Shown: positions 46,152-61,677 of the stretch, piece by piece
How positions within the stretch are numbered: the stretch's first letter is position 1
How the letters are laid out: every line of letters starts with the position of its first letter
Assembly: GCA_016208255.1 (NCBI GenBank)
Contig: JACQYK010000085.1
Span: forward strand, 38,996 to 102,995
Length of the DNA: 64,000 nt
Reading direction: 5' to 3'
From: Deltaproteobacteria bacterium
Lineage (GTDB): Bacteria; Desulfobacterota; RBG-13-43-22
Translations under genes and position numbers: made by a program
The notes under the pieces: generated by a model
What the model saw: the letters and a program-made list of their open reading frames with translations, nothing else
Told to the model about the DNA's origin: nothing
Databases searched by the model: none

Positions 46152-46267
46152 GAATGAATTGAGATTAGAATGTCAGTAAGAGTTTTCTCTTCCCATTGTA
46201 GGGATCATACCAAGGCGAGATAATTCTTTCAATGTAAATCTTAATAATTTTAGCTATTTTTGAAAAA

Positions 46268-46296
46268 AAACAGGCCGCTTGGGAGGCGGCCTGTTT
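46268..46296 (-). terminator. Intrinsic terminator downstream of pilin gene
   Basis: AAACAGGCCGC-TTGGGAG-GCGGCCTGTTT with poly-T on the minus strand side. Confidence 0.85.
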
Positions 46297-46327
46297 GGAA
46301 TGGGGCTGGCGATTTAGGATCGAATCA

Positions 46328-52416: not shown

Positions 52417-52706
52417 TGCTTTCCTTTCGCTTGCTTTATTCGGAGACCTCCGGCAGGCAAATCAAATCCCTTCATCCCGGGTTGAAGCCCCTTATAAAAA
52501 AACACATCGAAGACTTAAAAGAAAAACCTTTTCTGGGTAAACCGTTGGAGAGGGAATTGTCCGGATATTATTCTTTGAGAACGAAAAAATTCCGGATCAT
52601 CTATGATGTCGATCAAGAAAAACATATTATCCGGATACACTACCTGGGCCCACGAAAAGATATTTACGAACTTTTCAGACAGTGGTTGGCCGCAAACCGC
52701 AGATAA
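52416..52706 (+). CDS. RelE/ParE-family toxin
   Basis: 96 aa; LKPLIKKHIEDLKEKPFLGKPLERELSGYYSLRTKKFRIIYDVDQEKHIIRIHYLGPRKDIYE. Confidence 0.92.
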   Translation: MLSFRLLYSETSGRQIKSLHPGLKPLIKKHIEDLKEKPFLGKPLERELSGYYSLRTKKFRIIYDVDQEKHIIRIHYLGPRKDIYELFRQWLAANRR

Positions 52707-53457
52707 AACTTCCCACCGCTCCGATTCCTTCTTTTTCTACCAGCCTGATGGTTTGCGATCCTATGACGGCGATATCCGCCTTGCCTTTTAAAAAGTCGAT
52801 GTCGGATTTGTCCTTGACCCCGAAACCGACGGCCAGGGGCAGGGAGGTTGCCCGACGGCAGCGGTTTAGATAGTTGGCCAGATCGGTTGAAAAGCTGGTA
52901 TCGGCCCCGGTCACCCCTTTCCGGCTCAGACAATAAATAAAACCCCGGGCCAGAGAATCGATATATTGCATCCGGTTGTCCGGCGTGGTGGGAGAAAAGA
53001 AAAGGACCGGTATCAGTTCATTTTTATTCATCAGGTCAAGATACTCCTGACCTTCCTCCGGTGGAAGATCGGGGACGATGGCCCCCTGGAGATTTCTTTC
53101 CCGGAGCGTTTGAGCAAATTGTTCGACCCCATATTTAAAAAGAATATTGTAATAACTCATGATCAGAAAAGGGATTTTAAAAGTCTCAGAAACTTTCCGC
53201 GCAAAATCCAGACACCCCTGAACCGTCACGCCCCTTTTCAGGGCCTTCTGATTGGCCTTAAGGATCACCGGCCCGTCGGCCATGGGTTCGGAAAAGGGGA
53301 TTTGCAATTCCATGAGGTCCACCCCGGACTCGACCATAGACTCGATGACTTGAAGGCAGGTCCCCCAGGAAGGGTAGCCCAGGACAATGTGGGTCATGAG
53401 CAGGATATCTTTTTCTCGAATTTTCTTTTGCAGATAGGCGTCAAACGCTGTACCCAT
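52675..53457 (-). CDS. trpA: Tryptophan synthase alpha chain
   Basis: MGTAFDAYLQKK...; VDLMELQIPFSEPMADGPVI; 3' end overlaps the convergent toxin gene by about 30 bp. Confidence 0.95.
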   Translation of the reverse strand: MGTAFDAYLQKKIREKDILLMTHIVLGYPSWGTCLQVIESMVESGVDLMELQIPFSEPMADGPVILKANQKALKRGVTVQGCLDFARKVSETFKIPFLIMSYYNILFKYGVEQFAQTLRERNLQGAIVPDLPPEEGQEYLDLMNKNELIPVLFFSPTTPDNRMQYIDSLARGFIYCLSRKGVTGADTSFSTDLANYLNRCRRATSLPLAVGFGVKDKSDIDFLKGKADIAVIGSQTIRLVEKEGIGAVGSFICGLRPTTV

Positions 53458-54667
53458 GGGCTTTCTCCTGAATAAATTCTTTCCAGCTCGGATCCTCAAA
53501 GGCATCGGCGATGGTGAAGATGTCCTTGTCCCCCCGTCCTGACTGATTGATGATGATCATCTCCTCCCGGCTTAACTGTCCGGCCTCTTTAAAGGCCTGG
53601 ACAAAGGCATGGGCCGATTCCAGGGCCGGGATCAATCCTTCCTTTTTCAGGGTCAGGGATAAGGCCTCGATGACCTCCCGGTCGGTGGCCGCTTCCACCC
53701 GAATCCGGCCCTGTTCTTTAAGGAAGGATAAGATCGGTGAGACCCCGACATAATCCAGTCCGGCGGCTACACTATGGGTCTCTTTCATTTGACCGTCGTT
53801 GTCTTGCAGAAAGTAGGTTTTATACCCCTGGGCCACACCGATGGACCCATCCCTGGAAGCCAGTCTGGAAGCATGTTCCCCGCTGGTCAGTCCCTTTCCC
53901 CCGGCTTCCACCCCGACCAGTTCCACCGGATCATCCAGAAAGGCCTTGAAAATTCCCAGGGCGTTAGACCCGCCCCCGACGCAGGCATAAACACGCTGAG
54001 GGAGTCGGCCCTCCCTTTCTAATATCTGTTTCCGGGCTTCCTGGCCGATGATGGACTGAAAATAGGAAACCATTTCCGGAAAAGGGTGGGGGCCGCAAGC
54101 CGTGCCCAATACATAATGGGTATCATCCATATGGGTGATCCAGTCCCGGAAGGCCTCGTTGATGGCGTCTTTGAGTATGGCCGTTCCGTCTTTGACCGGA
54201 ATGACTTCGGCCCCCAAACGCTGCATCCAGAAGACATTGGGTCTTTGTCTTTTGACATCTACTTCCCCCATATAAATGGTGCAGCGGAATCCGAATTTGG
54301 CGGCCATGGTGGCCGTGGCCACGCCATGTTGACCGGCCCCGGTTTCAGCAATGACCCGGGTCTTTTTCATCCGTTTGACCAAAAGCCCCTGACCCATGAC
54401 GTTGTTGGCCTTGTGGGCGCCGGTGTGATTCAGGTCTTCCCTTTTGATGTAGATGCCTGCCCCCCCAAAATGGTTAGTTAAATTTTCAGCAAAGGTCAAA
54501 GGCGTCGGCCGGCAGGAATAAGTGGACATGATCTCCAGGTACTCCTGCCAGAAGGTCGGATCGTTTTTAGCCTTTTCGAAGGCCTCTACCAGATCGTCAA
54601 AGGTGGCCACCAGGATTTCGGGAATAAAGGCCCCGCCGAATGGCCCGTAATAACCGCGGTTTTTCAT
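53441..54667 (-). CDS. trpB: Tryptophan synthase beta chain
   Basis: 408 aa; REDLNHTGAHKANNV, ETGAGQHGVATAT, CVGGGSNALGIF. Confidence 0.98.
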   Translation of the reverse strand: MKNRGYYGPFGGAFIPEILVATFDDLVEAFEKAKNDPTFWQEYLEIMSTYSCRPTPLTFAENLTNHFGGAGIYIKREDLNHTGAHKANNVMGQGLLVKRMKKTRVIAETGAGQHGVATATMAAKFGFRCTIYMGEVDVKRQRPNVFWMQRLGAEVIPVKDGTAILKDAINEAFRDWITHMDDTHYVLGTACGPHPFPEMVSYFQSIIGQEARKQILEREGRLPQRVYACVGGGSNALGIFKAFLDDPVELVGVEAGGKGLTSGEHASRLASRDGSIGVAQGYKTYFLQDNDGQMKETHSVAAGLDYVGVSPILSFLKEQGRIRVEAATDREVIEALSLTLKKEGLIPALESAHAFVQAFKEAGQLSREEMIIINQSGRGDKDIFTIADAFEDPSWKEFIQEKAHGYSV

Positions 54668-54744
54668 GGATGTTAACTCCTTAGGTTTATAGACTAAAGG
54701 CTGAAGACTGAAGGTAAAAGGAGAAAAATTTGAGACCCAAAATC

Positions 54745-54872
54745 TTCATAAGTTCGTATAAATCCCAAAAGATAGTCACCCCGGTGAAAGCCGGGGTCCA
54801 GAAGCAGTAAATTCTCTGGATTCCGGCTTTCGCCGGAATGACAAAAAAAATTACCACCTTTTTGCGATTCAG
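54745..54872. repeat. Palindromic family R4, copy 3 (between trpB and trpF)
   Basis: TAGTCACCCCGGTGAAAGCCGGGGTCCAG...CTGGATTCCGGCTTTCGCCGGAATGAC. Confidence 0.9.
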
Positions 54873-55526
54873 TCATTCTTCTTTCATTCTGAATTCTGAC
54901 TCCTGGATTCTGTATTCGCTTATTTTTCTCATCAACTGTTTCATCAGAACCGGATCTTTCTTCCCAGGTCGTTTCTCAATGCCGCTGCTGACATCCACGG
55001 CGTAAGGTTTGACGGTGGTAATAGCTTCCTGGATATTTTCCGGTCCCAATCCACCGGCCATGATCAGGGGGATCCCTGTTTCCTTGGCTTTTACGGCCAG
55101 CGCCCAGTCAAAGGTCCGGCCCGTTCCTCCGGCCTTCCCCTTCTGAAAGGTATCCAGGAGTATGGCCCTGACGGCTCCCTGGTATCTTTTAATATTTTCC
55201 AAATCCCTTTCATTTTGAATACGAAAGGCCTTGATAGAGTGAGGCATCAGGTTTCGGCTTATTTCCGGTGATTCACCTCCGTGCAATTGAATAAGATCAA
55301 GACCGCAGGTTGAGGCAATCTCTTTAATTCTGACCGGGTCTTCATTGACGAAGACCCCCACGGTCTTTACCAGCGGTGGGAGGGAACGGATTATGGTCTT
55401 AGCCTTTGCCGGATCGATCCGCCTGGGGCTTTCGGCGAATATAAATCCAAGGGCATCGGCCCCCATTTCTGTTGCCAACAAGGCATCCTCCAGGTTTGTT
55501 ATCCCGCAAATTTTAACTTTGGTCAT
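54873..55526 (-). CDS. trpF: Phosphoribosylanthranilate isomerase
   Basis: 217 aa; MTKVKICGITNLEDALLATEMGADALGFIFAESPRRI; AVDVSSGIEKRPGKKD. Confidence 0.96.
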   Translation of the reverse strand: MTKVKICGITNLEDALLATEMGADALGFIFAESPRRIDPAKAKTIIRSLPPLVKTVGVFVNEDPVRIKEIASTCGLDLIQLHGGESPEISRNLMPHSIKAFRIQNERDLENIKRYQGAVRAILLDTFQKGKAGGTGRTFDWALAVKAKETGIPLIMAGGLGPENIQEAITTVKPYAVDVSSGIEKRPGKKDPVLMKQLMRKISEYRIQESEFRMKEE

Positions 55527-55638
55527 TTCTCTCTCTAAACCTTCATGCCTCTTGGGGCACTACAAGGCATGAAAATCCCCCCCTCCCCCTCCGAGGGGGG
55601 AGGGAAGGGGTGGGGGTGGTAATCTCCAATAGTTTTTA

Positions 55639-56415
55639 TCATCCGGCTTCGACCATCTCTCTGGTCTTCGACTCAAGGTCATTACTGCTCATCAAAGACG
55701 AACCGACCAGTACCGCATTAATCCCCAATCCTTTCAGGTCCTCCAGGTCCTTTTGATTATGGATGCCGCTCTCCCCAACGATGATATGGCCTGGGGGAAT
55801 CCGGGCGGCCAGTTTGTGGGTGGTCTGAAGGTTAATCTCAAAAGTATCCAGATCACGGTTGTTGATGCCGATTATTTCCGCTTTGGAATCAAGGGCCTTT
55901 TCCAGGTCATCCCGGTCATGGACTTCGACCAGCGCAGTCAGGCCTTTTTCATAACAAACCTGGAGTAATTCCCTGAATTGGGCTTTGGAAAGGATTCTGA
56001 CAATCAACAGGATAGCATCCGCTCCCCAGGCCAGGGCCTCTCGGATCTGTATCTCATCAATAATAAAATCCTTGCGCAGGATCGGCAGGGTTACCGCCTG
56101 CTTAACCCCGGGCAGATTTTCCAAATGTCCTTGAAAAAATTTTCGATCGGTCAATAAGGAAATGGCGGCCGCACCGGCTTGCTCATAAATCCGGCCAATC
56201 TTCAGCGGGTCCGTCCTTTCCCGAATCGTCCCGGCCGAAGGGGAGGCGAACTTGATCTCGGCAATCAGATTGATCCGGCCCGGCCGGGATATGGCGGTCT
56301 TGAAATCACGGATTCCGGGGATGTCCCTTTGACGAGGAGAGGAGATCCCGTTTCTTTTTAGTTGGGCCACTTCTTGTTTTTTCTCTTCCAATATTTCTAT
56401 TAGTCTTGAATGCAT
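55639..56415 (-). CDS. trpC: Indole-3-glycerol-phosphate synthase
   Basis: MHSRLIEILEEKKQEV...; LIAEIKFASPSAG, LRKDFIIDEIQI, IIGINNRDLDTFE, GESGI. Confidence 0.97.
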   Translation of the reverse strand: MHSRLIEILEEKKQEVAQLKRNGISSPRQRDIPGIRDFKTAISRPGRINLIAEIKFASPSAGTIRERTDPLKIGRIYEQAGAAAISLLTDRKFFQGHLENLPGVKQAVTLPILRKDFIIDEIQIREALAWGADAILLIVRILSKAQFRELLQVCYEKGLTALVEVHDRDDLEKALDSKAEIIGINNRDLDTFEINLQTTHKLAARIPPGHIIVGESGIHNQKDLEDLKGLGINAVLVGSSLMSSNDLESKTREMVEAG

Positions 56416-56509
56416 AAAAATTTCCGAAATATTGCGTTTATATAAGTCCCTCATGTCCCTTGAGGGCGTTATGAATCTTGAAATTGATACTATGCTGGGG
56501 AGAGATTAG

Positions 56510-56695
56510 TCATTCCGGCGAAGAGGCTGTGTCGTAATTAATAAAAATCCATCAAATCCGTCATACCGGCGAAAGCCGGTATCCAGGTTAAAGAAACCAT
56601 CTAAAGCCCTGGATGCCGGCCGACTCCCAAAGGGAGTCTTTGCTTAAAGTTCGGCGAAGCCGAACGACTCAAGTCCGGCATGACGGAAAAAAACC
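56510..56695. repeat. Palindromic family R4, copy 4 (between trpC and trpD), with palindromic cassette in arm 2
   Basis: GTCATACCGGCGAAAGCCGGTATCCAG...CTGGATGCCGGC[CGACTCCCAAAGGGAGTC...GTTCGGCGAAGCCGAAC...]CCGGCATGAC. Confidence 0.9.
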
Positions 56696-56728
56696 AAGCT
56701 CCCAGTGTAATGCAGGGTTGATTTCGTG

Positions 56729-57790
56729 CTACACTACAATATTGTTTGTAAAGGCAATCAACTGTTCAAGCTTTTTTTTCGCCCGACCCGAATCAATCAC
56801 TTCCCGGGCACGCTGGATCCCGGACTTCAGGTCCTGATCGAGTCCGGCGGCCACGAAGGCCGCGGCCGCGTTCAATAGAACCATGTCCTTTCGGGCCCCC
56901 TCCTGCCCGTCCAGGATATTTCGAATGATCCAGGCGTTTTCCTGGGCGTCCCCGCCTTTGATAGCATCGATCGCGGCCCTTTGAAATCCGTAATCCTCGG
57001 GGGTAATTTGATAACTGTGAACCTCTCCGTCTTTAAGATGAGAGATCCGGGTCGGGCTGCAGATGCTGATTTCATCGAAGGTTCCTTCCCCGCAAACCAC
57101 AAAGGCCTCTTTTGACCCCAGTTTGCCGAGGACCTGGGCCAACTTTTCGGTTAATTCGGGGGAGTAAACCCCGAGGACCTGGGCTGTCGCCCCGGCCGGG
57201 TTGGTCAAAGGCCCCAGGATATTAAATATGGTCCTCAATCCGATCTCTTTTCTCGGCCCGGCGGCATATTTCATGGCCCCATGAAAGAGTGGGGCAAATA
57301 AAAATCCCAAACCGATTTCGCGTATACATCTTTCCACATTCTGAGGGCTGATATCGAGTTTGACCCCTAGATTTTCCAAGACATCCGCACTTCCACATCT
57401 GCTGGAAACGGCTCTGTTGCCGTGTTTGGCGACCTTGATACCCCCTCCGGCGGCCACCAGAGCGGTAGCGGTCGAAACGTTAAAGGTGTTGGTCCCGTCT
57501 CCGCCGGTCCCGCAAGTGTCCAGTATCGTTTCCGCATCAATGTTGATTTCGTCCCGGTCAAGGCTTAAGGAGGCGTCGATCACATTAATCCTGGTTGCCT
57601 TCTCCCTCATCACCCTCGCGGCGCCGACGATTTCATCCACTGTTTCCCCCTTCATGCGCAAGGCGGTGATAAAGGCCCCGATCTGGGCCGGGGTCGCTTC
57701 CCCGCTCATGATCTCATTCATGGCCGCCTCCATCTCCGCCTGGTTCAGATCCTCTCTGTTGACCACCTTCCCAATCGCTCCCTGGATCAT
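56729..57790 (-). CDS. trpD: Anthranilate phosphoribosyltransferase
   Basis: 353 aa; [48 protein letters not shown]. Confidence 0.98.
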
Positions 57791-57932: not shown

Positions 57933-60083
57933 TTATAATTTAGGTCTCCCCAGTAAACGAACAACATTGTTCAGCAGTTTCAAACCCAGATCGTCCTTGA
58001 GGGTCAGGATTGATTCCGGATGAAACTGCACGGCCGCCATCGGCAGCTCTTTATGGGCAATTCCCATAACCACCTGGTCATCACTGACAGCCGTTTTTTC
58101 CAGACAGGAGGGTAGATCTTCCATCCTGGCAAAAATGGAGTGATAACGGCCGGCCTTAAAGGTCTCCGGGAATCCTTCAAAAATCCCTTTTTGGTTATTC
58201 CTGATCATCGAGGGTTTTCCATGCATCGGATAATCCAGCAGGCTGAGTCTTCCACCAAAGGCTTCAACCATCCCCTGCAGACCCAGACAAACCCCAAATA
58301 CCGGCAGAATCCGTTCGGCACAGGCCTTGACCAGATTGGCCACCCCGAAATCGGAGGGTCGACCCGGACCGGGAGAGAGAAAGATCATGTCCCACTTCTC
58401 CTGGTCCAGGATTTCAAGCGGGAAGCCGGCTCGTAAAGTCATAACCTGGGCCCCGGTCTGACGAACGTAATTGGCCAGGGTATGGACAAAGGAGTCCTCA
58501 TGATCCACAAAAAGGATTTTGGGCGCCTTTCCCTTGGGAAGAGAGGGAACAAAGGGAACCCGTTCCGGCGGTTTTTTCCCTAAAACAGCGTCGATAAAGG
58601 CGGCGGCCTTAAGACGGGTCTCTTTTTCTTCCTCATCCGGGTCTGAGTCCACCAGCAGGGTGGCGCCGACCCTCACCCTGGCCAATCCGTCCTTCAGATG
58701 GATGGTCCGAATGGTGATGCCGGTGTTCAGATTGCCGTTAAAGCTGATAAACCCTATAGCGCCACCATACCATTCCCGAGGTGAATTTTCCAGTTCTTCA
58801 ATGCGCTGCATGGCGGCTCTCTTGGGGGCTCCGGTCAAAGTGACCGCCCACATGTGGGATAAAAAGGCGTCCAGAGAATCGCAATCCTTGCGCAAAGTCC
58901 CGGTCACATGATCGACCGTATGGAAAAGACGGGAATAGGTTTCAATAAGACGTCGGCCCTTTAAGTTCACGGTTCCGGGTTTACAGATACGGGATTTGTC
59001 ATTGCGATCCACATCGGTAACCATGGTCAGTTCCGATTCATCTTTAATTGAATTGAGCAAGGTCCGAATCTGGTCCGAATCTTCCATGGCGTCCCTTCCC
59101 CGGGCGATCGTCCCGGAAATGGGGCAGGTTTCCACAAAGTCTCCCTCCACGCGGACGAACATTTCCGGGGATGAACCGACCAGTTGCTCATCTCCCATAT
59201 TGATCAAAAACTCGTAGGGACTGGGGTTGACCTTTCGGACCACGTGAAATAAATCCCCCGCTGTGCCGGCATAACCGGTGTAAAAAAGCTGACTGGGGAC
59301 GACTTCGAAAAAATCACCTTTCCGGCAGCCTTCCTGGACCTGTCGAACCTTGTCGGCATATTCTCCCGGTTCATGATCCATTTTGATGGAACCGGGCTCT
59401 CCTCTTTTAACCTCCAGACCGTCTCCGTTGCGCTCCAACCCCAGGGTGTCCTGCCCGTTGAATATAAAATCATAGCATCTTCTCTGGGCTGTCTCTTTAC
59501 GATGGTCGACCAGGATTAATTCATCGGGAAGGAACAGGTGCGCCTCTTTATAGAAAGCCGGGCGTTGATGTTTCAATCGAATCGGTTCAAACTGGAAGGC
59601 CAGATCATAACCAAAGGCCCCGTATAATCCCAGATGGAGATCGGCCTCAGAGCCGAACAGTTTAATGATCGTACGGATAATGGAAAAGAAACTGGGCTGC
59701 TTGCTGCGCTCCTCTTCCGGGAAATAACCGGACATGGGAAGAATCTTTCCAGTTATTTGATCGTCGGTCCTCTCTATCTCAACCAGATGAGGATTTTGGC
59801 TTAACGGGGAGTAAAGAAAACCTAAAAGGATTTTTCCCCGCTCATTCAGGGCGTTCATTTGGAATTTCCGGTCATAGCCGATAATCTGAAGGGGAGGATT
59901 TAGAAAGGCGATATCCCAGCGGCTATATCTTCCCGGATACTCATATCCGCTGGCAAAAACAGCACCTTTGAATTTATCAATCCCCGCCAGGGGAATTTCC
60001 AGCCCGGATTCGTAAGGTAAACCTTCAACGCTTCGAAGGACCTTTATCCCAGCCTCGGTTACATAGTGATCATTCATGGCCAA
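57933..60083 (-). CDS. trpEG: Anthranilate synthase, fused component I (TrpE) and glutamine amidotransferase (TrpG)
   Basis: 716 aa; CPISGTIARGRDAMEDS, GAPKRAAMQRIEELE (TrpE) then ILFVDHEDSFVHTLANYVRQTGA...PVFGVCLGLQGM...VQFHPESIL (TrpG). Confidence 0.96.
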   Translation of the reverse strand: MAMNDHYVTEAGIKVLRSVEGLPYESGLEIPLAGIDKFKGAVFASGYEYPGRYSRWDIAFLNPPLQIIGYDRKFQMNALNERGKILLGFLYSPLSQNPHLVEIERTDDQITGKILPMSGYFPEEERSKQPSFFSIIRTIIKLFGSEADLHLGLYGAFGYDLAFQFEPIRLKHQRPAFYKEAHLFLPDELILVDHRKETAQRRCYDFIFNGQDTLGLERNGDGLEVKRGEPGSIKMDHEPGEYADKVRQVQEGCRKGDFFEVVPSQLFYTGYAGTAGDLFHVVRKVNPSPYEFLINMGDEQLVGSSPEMFVRVEGDFVETCPISGTIARGRDAMEDSDQIRTLLNSIKDESELTMVTDVDRNDKSRICKPGTVNLKGRRLIETYSRLFHTVDHVTGTLRKDCDSLDAFLSHMWAVTLTGAPKRAAMQRIEELENSPREWYGGAIGFISFNGNLNTGITIRTIHLKDGLARVRVGATLLVDSDPDEEEKETRLKAAAFIDAVLGKKPPERVPFVPSLPKGKAPKILFVDHEDSFVHTLANYVRQTGAQVMTLRAGFPLEILDQEKWDMIFLSPGPGRPSDFGVANLVKACAERILPVFGVCLGLQGMVEAFGGRLSLLDYPMHGKPSMIRNNQKGIFEGFPETFKAGRYHSIFARMEDLPSCLEKTAVSDDQVVMGIAHKELPMAAVQFHPESILTLKDDLGLKLLNNVVRLLGRPKL

Positions 60084-60146
60084 GCTCCTAATGAAAGGTA
60101 TTTGAAATTTTTCCGCTATTTCTTTTCGGTTTTTTAAATTAATAAC

Positions 60147-60247
60147 TTTTTAGACAGAATTTCCGCCGGAAGCGGATCGAGGTTGCTCAGGGTCGTCCGG
60201 AGCCTGAGCAAAATTCCTGTCAATCCTGTTAATCCTGTCAGATAATT
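60147..60247 (-). repeat. Repeat family R1, partial copy F, between trp leader and trpEG
   Basis: TCCGCCGGAAGCGGA..GTTGCTCAGGGTCGTCCGGAGCCTGAGC..TCCTGTCAATCCTGTTAATCCTGTCAGATAA. Confidence 0.8.
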
Positions 60248-60297
60248 TCTTTCCTGGTCCAAAGGGGACCATTTTGTCGGTGACTCCTAAAATAAAA

Positions 60298-60326
60298 AAG
60301 GCCGTGATTTTTTCTCTCACGGCCTT
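60298..60326 (-). terminator. Second terminator-like hairpin in the trp leader
   Basis: Minus strand AAGGCCGTGA-GAGAAAAAA-TCACGGCCTTTTTTATTTT. Confidence 0.85.
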
Positions 60327-60344
60327 TTGAGTGCAAAAATAAAA

Positions 60345-60379
60345 AAGCCGTGGAGACCTTGAGCGGTTCTCCACGGCTT
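60345..60379 (-). promoter_or_regulatory. trp attenuator terminator hairpin
   Basis: Minus strand AAGCCGTGGAGA-ACCGCTCAAGG-TCTCCACGGCTTTTTTATTTTT. Confidence 0.92.
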
Positions 60380-60396
60380 ATGATTTCTCTGTCAGG

Positions 60397-60471
60397 TCAG
60401 CGGCGGACGAACCCCTCCCTTGAATCCTGCCACCACCACCAGTTATTGTTACTCATTGAAATTTGATTCAT
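60397..60471 (-). CDS. trpL: trp operon leader peptide
   Basis: 24 aa, below ORF-track threshold: MNQISMSNNNWWWWQDSREGFVRR*, four consecutive TGG codons directly before the attenuator hairpin. Confidence 0.93.
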   Translation of the reverse strand: MNQISMSNNNWWWWQDSREGFVRR

Positions 60472-60695
60472 TGTTCGGTTTCCTGAAAAAATATGAATAA
60501 TAGTTTACTAAATCTAAAAATACGAGTCAATACTTTTTTGCAATCTTTTTTTACAATCCTAAAGAATTGACTTTAACTGTTGGATATGTTTTAATTTGTT
60601 CTTTAGAAAACTGGTTTACCCAATCAGCGATCCTTAACCGAAAGGCTGGTCTATGAAGTAGTCCGACAAGACCCCTATTTCCCAGCCTGGCTGAA

Positions 60696-60967
60696 GTACC
60701 GAGTAAGGAACTGGCCGTGTTCAAAGAACGGGCCATTAAAAGCGGTTTTGACCTTATTGACTTTTGGGCCGTGGACTTCGACTGGCAGGAAGGCAAGCCC
60801 TTTGAGCATCATTGGCAGGATTACCGGACCTGGAAAGATCGGTCTCTCAAAACCATCAGCGATTTCGGCTATACCAAGTATCCGAAAAAGGTAAATACAT
60901 CGCCTGCGTGAAGGTGATCGATGTTTTTGGTTGTGATTCCAGCATAGCTGTTGAAATTGAGGTATAA
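60696..60967 (+). pseudogene. C-terminal remnant of a DNA methyltransferase (Mod-like), frameshifted
   Basis: VPSKELAVFKERAIKSGFDLIDFWAVDFDWQEGKPFEHHWQDYRTWKDRSLKTISDFGYTKYPKK then, one frame over, GKYIACVKVIDVFGCDSSIAVEIEV*. Confidence 0.65.
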
Positions 60968-61007
60968 TATCAATTAAAAAAAGGACAATCCCCAAGGAGG
61001 ACATAAA

Positions 61008-61244
61008 ATGCAAACCACCGTTATCTATTCGGACGGACAGACCCTAAAAACCAATTCAATCTTAAGGAAGTGGTTGGGGAGGCAGAAAAAATTTATTGCC
61101 ATCATAGAAGGAAACAGCCTGATCATCAAAAAACCTCATTCTCTTTTGGATTTTTCTGCCGAACCGGATGAAGATTTTATGACTATGGAAGAAATAAACA
61201 AGGAAATCCACAAGGCAAGGAAAGAGAATGAACATCGTCGTTGA
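61008..61244 (+). CDS. Putative antitoxin of PIN-type TA module
   Basis: 78 aa; overlaps the downstream PIN gene by 17 bp; ...EDFMTMEEINKEIHKARKENEHRR. Confidence 0.75.
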   Translation: MQTTVIYSDGQTLKTNSILRKWLGRQKKFIAIIEGNSLIIKKPHSLLDFSAEPDEDFMTMEEINKEIHKARKENEHRR

Positions 61245-61677
61245 TACCAATATCTTAGTTTCAGCCGTTTTGTGGAAAGGCCCTCCTTTTCAGGCTTTGA
61301 AAATTATTTTGGAGATGCACTCCTTGGTTCAGAGCCAATCGACCATAGAAGAATTTGAAAAGGTAATCCGGAGAGAAAAATTCAGAAAAATTCTTGAGAA
61401 AAGTGGAGGAACCCCCGAGACCCTTATTGAAACCCTTATTCTTGAAAGCAAATTCTATGCTATTTCAAGACGATCAGCAGCCAAGGCCAAACGGATCAAA
61501 ATCGAGGATAAGGAAGATGCCATTTTTCTTGAACTTGCCTTAGAGGCTAAGGCCCCAATTGTTGTCTCCGGGGATAAACACCTGCTTGACCTTAAAGAAG
61601 TCAGTCAGATTAAATTTGTAAGCGCAAAAGAATTTCTTGCCCTCCAGGGCGAATTTCTAAAATTAACGCCGGTTTAA
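61228..61677 (+). CDS. PIN-domain toxin
   Basis: 149 aa; MNIVVDTNILVSAVLWKGPPFQALKII...IEDKEDAIFLELALEAKAPIVVSGDKHLLDLKEV. Confidence 0.93.
   Translation: MNIVVDTNILVSAVLWKGPPFQALKIILEMHSLVQSQSTIEEFEKVIRREKFRKILEKSGGTPETLIETLILESKFYAISRRSAAKAKRIKIEDKEDAIFLELALEAKAPIVVSGDKHLLDLKEVSQIKFVSAKEFLALQGEFLKLTPV

What the first reader, a model, noticed from the sequence alone, without database searches (positions are those of the whole stretch)
60298..60471. Unannotated trp leader peptide (WWWW) with classical attenuation architecture and tandem terminators
Minus strand: ATG...TGG TGG TGG TGG...TGA (MNQISMSNNNWWWWQDSREGFVRR), then terminator AAGCCGTGGAGA/TCTCCACGGCTTTTTT. An antiterminator can be drawn: leader GAGGGGTTC (complement of 60409-60417) pairs 8/9 with GAACCGCTC (complement of 60361-60369), which overlaps the terminator 5' arm and loop, so ribosome stalling at Trp codons could free it. 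A second terminator-like hairpin (60298-60326) follows. Two tandem hairpins before trpEG is less usual than the single enterobacterial attenuator.
Basis: partly seen in the sequence, partly recalled or inferred. Interest (0 to 1): 0.62.

Follow-up and report, generated by a model that had tools for sequence, protein, structure and literature searches.

The report
Two-terminator tryptophan leader attenuator
A short tryptophan-rich leader gene and two back-to-back transcription-stopping hairpins in front of the tryptophan operon form a classical 'attenuator' switch, and the two-hairpin design turns out to be widespread in front of aromatic amino-acid genes across this bacterial phylum, where the hairpins appear built to be switched off together.

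Summary
On the minus strand a 24-codon ORF (60471-60397, MNQISMSNNNWWWWQDSREGFVRR) is followed by two intrinsic terminators, T1 (60379-60341) and T2 (60328-60294), then fused trpEG-D-C-F-B-A. The attenuator reading is supported: leader, both terminators and a promoter-like site survive in a same-genus genome whose T2-trpEG linker does not, and homologous leaders precede trpE across the phylum.

Two hairpins are not unusual here. A covariance model finds the element upstream of trpE, trpD, trpB2, DAHP-synthase and ADH-synthase genes, with leader codons (Trp, or Phe/Tyr) fitting the gene.

New here: T1's 3' arm can pair with T2's 5' arm ('4:5'). This pairing is usually stronger than the control pairing 3:6 and than mispaired arms, so antitermination at T1 would also block T2: a relay, 1:2/3:4/5:6 versus 2:3/4:5. 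The relay is inferred, not shown; fail-safe termination by T2 is the main rival. Known kind, new variant, no matching Rfam family.

The parts
60502..60530 (-). promoter-like site TTGACT-17-TAAACT
   Evidence: consensus scan, 9 of 12 matches, about as many found as expected by chance; TTGACT and a -10-like TATACT also in G002
60397..60471 (-). leader peptide ORF MNQISMSNNNWWWWQDSREGFVRR
   Evidence: sequence; C-terminal NNNWWWWQDSREGFVRR conserved in G002, WWW(W) in homologous leaders
60428..60441 (-). segment 1: four Trp codons; can pair with segment 2 (60409-60394 region)
   Evidence: 1:2 duplex -17.4 kcal/mol
60399..60417 (-). segment 2: 5' arm of the antiterminator, inside the last leader codons and reaching the first base of the stop codon
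   Evidence: 16-bp 2:3 helix; 88 elements mean z -3.04
60361..60379 (-). segment 3: 3' arm of the antiterminator and 5' arm plus part of the loop of T1
60341..60379 (-). terminator T1 (3:4), U6 at 60346-60341
   Evidence: -25.2 kcal/mol; T1+T2 columns 94% paired in 19 relatives, 0 of 500 shuffles as high
60341..60356 (-). segment 4: 3' arm and U-tract of T1; pairs with segment 5 when free
   Evidence: 4:5 duplex -21.5 kcal/mol; hairpin -18.8
60313..60328 (-). segment 5: 5' arm of T2
60294..60328 (-). terminator T2 (5:6), U6 at 60299-60294
   Evidence: -18.3 kcal/mol; conserved in relatives; U-tract in 84 of 88 elements
57933..60077 (-). trpEG, fused anthranilate synthase, first regulated gene
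   Evidence: NCBIfam TIGR01815 TrpE-clade3, 947 bits over a cut-off of 739
52675..57790 (-). trpD, trpC, trpF, trpB, trpA, rest of the operon
   Evidence: ORFs; NCBIfam for trpD, trpB, trpA; same genes in G002 and, for all of them, in G033

Best explanation
This is a ribosome-mediated transcription attenuator of the trp operon with two coupled terminators. With ample Trp-tRNA the ribosome runs to the leader stop codon and covers segment 2, so T1 (3:4) forms and transcription stops; what leaks past T1 is caught by T2 (5:6). When Trp-tRNA is scarce the ribosome stalls on the four Trp codons and leaves segment 2 free. Segment 2 pairs with segment 3 (2:3), T1 cannot form, and the freed segment 4 pairs with segment 5 as it emerges (4:5), so T2 is blocked too and RNA polymerase reaches trpEG. 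Without translation, 1:2 sequesters segment 2 and both terminators act. Shown by computation: the parts, their conservation, the codon-pathway match, the 2:3/3:4 alternative, and the capacity for and bias towards 4:5. Inferred: ribosome positions, kinetics, the response to Trp, and that 4:5 really disarms T2.
For: Leader, T1 and T2 conserved across the phylum. 85 of 90 model hits have an aromatic-rich leader and 87 of 90 precede an aromatic pathway gene, Phe/Tyr-rich before ADH synthase and Trp-rich before trpE. 2:3 isoenergetic with T1, 88% paired versus 45-55% slid, z -3.04 over 88 elements. For the relay: in the window 4:5 is the minimum-energy fold until polymerase passes about 60300 once segment 3 is engaged; 4:5 stronger than 3:6 in 24 of 33 unequal clusters (Wilcoxon p 0.0009) and native 4:5 stronger than arms permuted between clusters, P<5e-5. 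No TrpR found.
Against: No expression data. The relay is less certain than the attenuator: complete minimum-energy folds of segments 4-6 pair segment 5 with segment 6 in 74 of 88 elements, so 4:5 must win kinetically; trpB2 leaders carry a change that weakens 4:5 and suits 3:6; native 3:6 also beats permuted arms, so shared origin of the two hairpins contributes; some trpE leaders in the phylum have only one hairpin with a similar core; the clusters are not fully independent.
Confidence: 0.6

Rival explanations
1. Classical attenuator at T1 only; T2 is an uncoupled fail-safe terminator that lowers leak (and also caps induced expression), and its likeness to T1 comes from duplication of the hairpin.
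For: Explains T2's U-tract and the shared core; native 3:6 pairing is also better than permuted; single-hairpin trp leaders exist in the phylum; trpB2 leaders do not favour 4:5.
Against: An uncontrolled T2 would undo antitermination at T1. Duplication predicts equal 4:5 and 3:6, but 4:5 is stronger, with the differences between hairpins mostly in the direction that keeps G-U pairs in 4:5.
Confidence: 0.32
2. T2 is mainly an mRNA 5'-end or processing structure upstream of the trpE ribosome-binding site, and its terminator function is secondary.
For: T2 ends a median 27 nt before the next ORF; four elements, e.g. L151 and L161, keep the stem but have a poor U-tract.
Against: 84 of 88 elements keep a U-tract of at least 5 of 8 T; in the window T2 is 217 nt from trpEG.
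Confidence: 0.05
3. Not a leader-peptide attenuator: the hairpins belong to a riboswitch (trpB-motif like) and the ORF is coincidental.
For: Sub-threshold Rfam match to RF04312 (33.8 bits, cut-off 59, E 0.028).
Against: That motif is described from Firmicutes and Fusobacteria (PMC11109978); the match covers only the two hairpins, and the genome-wide RF04312 search called a different contig, not this site. Leader codons track the pathway across operons.
Confidence: 0.03

Closest known systems
E. coli trp operon leader / Rfam RF00513 Trp_leader (classical ribosome-mediated attenuation)
   Same: Leader peptide with consecutive Trp codons, 1:2, 2:3 and 3:4 alternatives, terminator before trpE (E. 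coli facts from general knowledge).
   Different: Two terminators with shared arm sequences; antiterminator 5' arm lies inside the leader's last codons; no match of the window to RF00513 even at E 1; one relative, L171, matches below cut-off, 31 versus 41 bits.
Rfam RF04312 trpB motif (PMC11109978)
   Same: Two successive hairpins, the second a terminator; [quoted passage not shown]
   Different: Firmicutes and Fusobacteria, mostly before transporter genes, proposed riboswitch; window scores 33.8 against a cut-off of 59; here a leader peptide and T1 itself is a terminator.
ermK leader of Bacillus licheniformis (Kwak et al. 1991, cited in PMC5418344)
   Same: Leader-peptide-controlled transcription attenuation; from memory two premature termination sites, the nearest mechanistic precedent.
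   Different: Senses macrolides at a resistance gene; the original paper is not held, so its arm pairing could not be compared.
Salmonella mgtCBR tandem attenuators (PMC3641672)
   Same: More than one attenuation device in one leader.
   Different: Two leader ORFs sensing two independent signals; here one ORF and, as proposed, one signal relayed to two terminators.
rimP leader of some Gammaproteobacteria (PMC2965389)
   Same: A second terminator in tandem with a potential antiterminator.
   Different: No leader peptide described for it in that passage; different gene and sequence motif.

Membership tests
Ribosome-mediated (classical) trp attenuator | Short translated ORF with consecutive codons for the regulated amino acid | tested here: met
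   WWWW ORF, conserved in relatives; translation itself not shown
Ribosome-mediated (classical) trp attenuator | Intrinsic terminator between leader and first structural gene | tested here: met
   T1 -25.2 kcal/mol with U6, and T2; base pairs conserved with double changes
Ribosome-mediated (classical) trp attenuator | Mutually exclusive antiterminator whose 5' arm is exposed by a ribosome stalled at the key codons and hidden by one at the stop codon | tested here: met
   2:3 helix, energies, pair counts and shuffles; ribosome footprint assumed
Ribosome-mediated (classical) trp attenuator | Leader codons match the pathway of the downstream gene | tested here: met
   trpEG-D-C-F-B-A downstream; codon match across operons
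Ribosome-mediated (classical) trp attenuator | Promoter upstream of the leader | tested here: inconclusive
   consensus site 60530-60502, number found not above chance, partly conserved in G002
Ribosome-mediated (classical) trp attenuator | Readthrough rises when charged tRNA-Trp is scarce | not testable with these tools
   needs an experiment
Rfam RF00513 Trp_leader | Covariance score above the gathering cut-off | tested here: not met
   no match for the window at E up to 1; no match in eleven of twelve loci, L171 31 bits versus 41
Rfam RF04312 trpB motif | Covariance score above the gathering cut-off | tested here: not met
   33.8 bits versus 59; 0 of 59 relatives over the cut-off
T-box or other Rfam leader | Match to a described family | tested here: not met
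   no other Rfam match at E up to 1 in 59000-61500
TrpR-repressed operon | TrpR (PF01371) encoded in the genome | tested here: not met
   no match in the 96%-complete draft; control search found it in E. coli

The most novel reading that the evidence does not exclude
A phylum-wide family of aromatic amino-acid attenuators, not in Rfam, in which one ribosome-stalling event is relayed through a chain of alternative helices (2:3, then 4:5) to disarm two successive terminators; the same chassis is fitted with Trp or Phe/Tyr codons before trp, DAHP-synthase and ADH-synthase genes.
Probability: 0.5. Interest if true: 0.65.

Novelty: new variant of a known kind. Interest (0 to 1): 0.55.

Why it matters
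It extends classical attenuation to what looks like a common control of aromatic amino-acid synthesis across a phylum in which the genomes at hand are mostly drafts of unstudied organisms; in this genome no TrpR was found. If the relay is right, two terminators can be controlled by one switch, giving a tighter off state without losing the on state, and the design makes sharp, easily tested mutational predictions. It also shows a regulator outliving its gene: the leader seems to have stayed while trpE and trpG were replaced by a fused trpEG.

Tried and rejected
RF04312 as the identity: below cut-off, and its hits in relatives are weak and often on both strands, as any tandem hairpins would be. 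The leader as something brought in with the fused trpEG: rejected, since of 42 trpEG loci scanned only same-genus L051 has a strong match (L041 scores 16.6 bits). A genome-wide preference for GCCGTG terminators: rejected for this genome. Covariation of 4:5 in the blast-collected set: uninformative because the core hardly varies. First hairpin parsing by whole-region minimum energy misassigned arms in several elements, so arms were taken from the model alignment; single-linkage and loose clustering collapsed the set and were replaced by tighter cuts. The other weak window hit of the model, 46200-46297, holds one ordinary terminator. Searching another phylum with the model failed because 'of' takes only G handles. 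Key papers on attenuator evolution and on ermK are not held, so an earlier description cannot be excluded.

Full report
Observation. An ATG ORF of at most 40 codons with three or more Trp in a row occurs in none of 60 dinucleotide shuffles.

Conservation. G002 (its trpEG contig matches MGQB01000021.1, Deltaproteobacteria bacterium RBG_13_43_22) keeps the end of the leader (NNNWWWWQDSREGFVRR), both terminators and the promoter-like site, while the linker between T2 and trpEG is not conserved. A DNA search of 395 genomes of the phylum found homologous leaders; of the fifteen best, the window included, the others match at 73-86% identity. All fifteen have a WWW(W) leader and T1; fourteen have T2, 50-58 nt after T1 in those measured, and the fifteenth runs off its contig before T2.

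Alternative structures. If a ribosome stalled on the Trp codons leaves the RNA free from 60418, the transcript up to the T1 loop folds into a 16-bp antiterminator, -25.3 kcal/mol; if a ribosome at the stop codon covers down to 60385, T1 forms at -25.2. With a further 60 bases or so the T1 fold becomes the lower in energy even in the stalled state, so the antiterminator must hold kinetically, as classical attenuation assumes. Across 19 relatives 88% of cells are paired against 45-55% in slid versions, with changes on both sides at four pairs; the nine-pair version gives 82.5% and a covariation score reached by 2 of 500 shuffles. Over 88 elements the 2:3 duplex averages -24.0 against -15.3 kcal/mol for shuffled segment 2 (mean z -3.04, 92% below -1.645). 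Without a ribosome a 1:2-type hairpin over the Trp codons forms together with T1.

A wider family. A covariance model of T1+T2 built from 19 leaders matched 241 of 395 phylum genomes at E 0.01 or better; many of these matches are weak. I read the 90 best sites. Downstream genes are trpE (50), DAHP synthase (16), trpD (11), trpB2 (5), ADH synthase (4), iorA (1, where only one hairpin is clear) and three unassigned; 85 of 90 have at least three W, F or Y within seven leader residues (identities of representatives by NCBIfam). TrpE leaders are Trp-rich, ADH-synthase leaders Phe/Tyr-rich (for example SYFFYYY), DAHP-synthase leaders of either kind. The model knows nothing of the peptide beyond two Trp codons and the sequence after them, so this codon match is strong evidence for attenuation. 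In this genome the trpEG site is the only strong match, and no TrpR is found.

The second hairpin. T2 has at least 5 T in 8 after its stem in 84 of 88 elements, starts a median 18 nt after T1 and ends a median 27 nt before the next ORF. An uncontrolled T2 would undo antitermination at T1. T1's 3' arm (segment 4) is complementary to T2's 5' arm (segment 5). In the window, with segment 3 engaged, 4:5 (-18.8 kcal/mol) is the minimum-energy fold from when segment 5 has emerged until polymerase passes about 60300; at 60296 the 5:6 fold is only 0.6 kcal/mol better. Over the 88 elements mean energies are 3:4 -25.2, 4:5 -20.2 and 5:6 -21.5 kcal/mol; in complete folds of segments 4 to 6, segment 5 pairs with 6 in 74 and with 4 in 14, so the order of synthesis matters.

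Is 4:5 selected? Mere duplication of a hairpin would make 4:5 and 3:6 equally good. Core 4:5 averages -13.3 and 3:6 -11.6 kcal/mol. By cluster 24 favour 4:5, 9 favour 3:6 and 4 are equal (Wilcoxon p 0.0009, sign test p 0.014), and native 4:5 beats arms permuted between clusters (P<5e-5). The cause is visible in the arms: many differences between the hairpins are C-to-U or A-to-G from segment 3 to segment 5, which give G-U pairs in 4:5 but A-C clashes in 3:6, as in L165, L173, L184 and L217. Other cases change in concert, such as CTGCGGT/GCCGCAG in L228. In this genome the two hairpins are the only ones with this core. Against it: trpB2 leaders go the other way, native 3:6 also beats permuted arms, and a survey anchored on trpE rather than on the model shows single-hairpin trp leaders beside tandem ones. 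I hold the plain attenuator reading at about 0.95 and the relay at about 0.6.

Evolution. In same-family G004 a 76%-identical leader precedes ordinary, unfused trpE (34% identical to the window's TrpE part) and trpG (40%), though trpD is 69% identical. Apart from G002, the window's trpEG is closest to genes of Bryobacterales, Sedimentisphaerales and relatives (52-57%), which lack a strong match to the element. The simplest reading is replacement of trpE and trpG by a fused gene beneath a leader that stayed; no tree was made.

Known or new. The kind is known: classical trp attenuation. Rfam has no family that matches above threshold. I found no description of this tandem design in the open literature held, but key papers are not held, so absence of a report is not proof. 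From memory, ermK also shows two premature termination sites and is the nearest mechanistic precedent.

Limits. Everything is computational. Ribosome footprints and folding kinetics are inferred. Elements were collected with a model trained on similar leaders, which favours the common core sequence. The genome is a draft with 7.5% estimated contamination.

Noticed in passing
57933-60077 (-): Fused trpEG (TrpE-clade3) seems to have replaced separate trpE and trpG in this genus under a retained leader: same-family G004 has the leader with unfused trpE (34%) and trpG (40%) but trpD at 69% identity; nearest trpEG outside the genus are in Bryobacterales and Sedimentisphaerales.
   Followed up: partly
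L189, L190, L214, L219: TrpB-like (trpB2) leaders with Trp-rich peptides have a G-to-A change in the T2 arm that weakens 4:5 and suits 3:6, the opposite of most of the family.
   Followed up: partly
L042, L045, L099: WWW-containing short ORFs upstream of fused trpEG in Planctomycetota-type genomes (e.g. MSKVIFNNIWWWRNGWCGGPGD), apparently attenuators of another make, without the tandem element.
   Followed up: no
L237: trpE leader whose T1 and T2 differ in sequence, yet the T1 3' arm GGGGCCUUGGUUUUUU can pair with the T2 5' arm AAAAAGCCGUGGCCCC (seen by eye).
   Followed up: no
60180-60245 (-): Linker between T2 and trpEG holds a repeat-like stretch, CTGACAGGATTAACAGGATTGACAGGA, absent from G002.
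   Followed up: no
61228-61677 (+): Divergent ORF upstream that by eye resembles a PIN-domain protein (MNIVVDTNILVSAVLWKG); family not tested.
   Followed up: no
L151, L161: Elements that keep the T2 stem but have a poor U-tract (TTCGTCAT, CTTTGGCT), so T2 may not be a terminator there.
   Followed up: no
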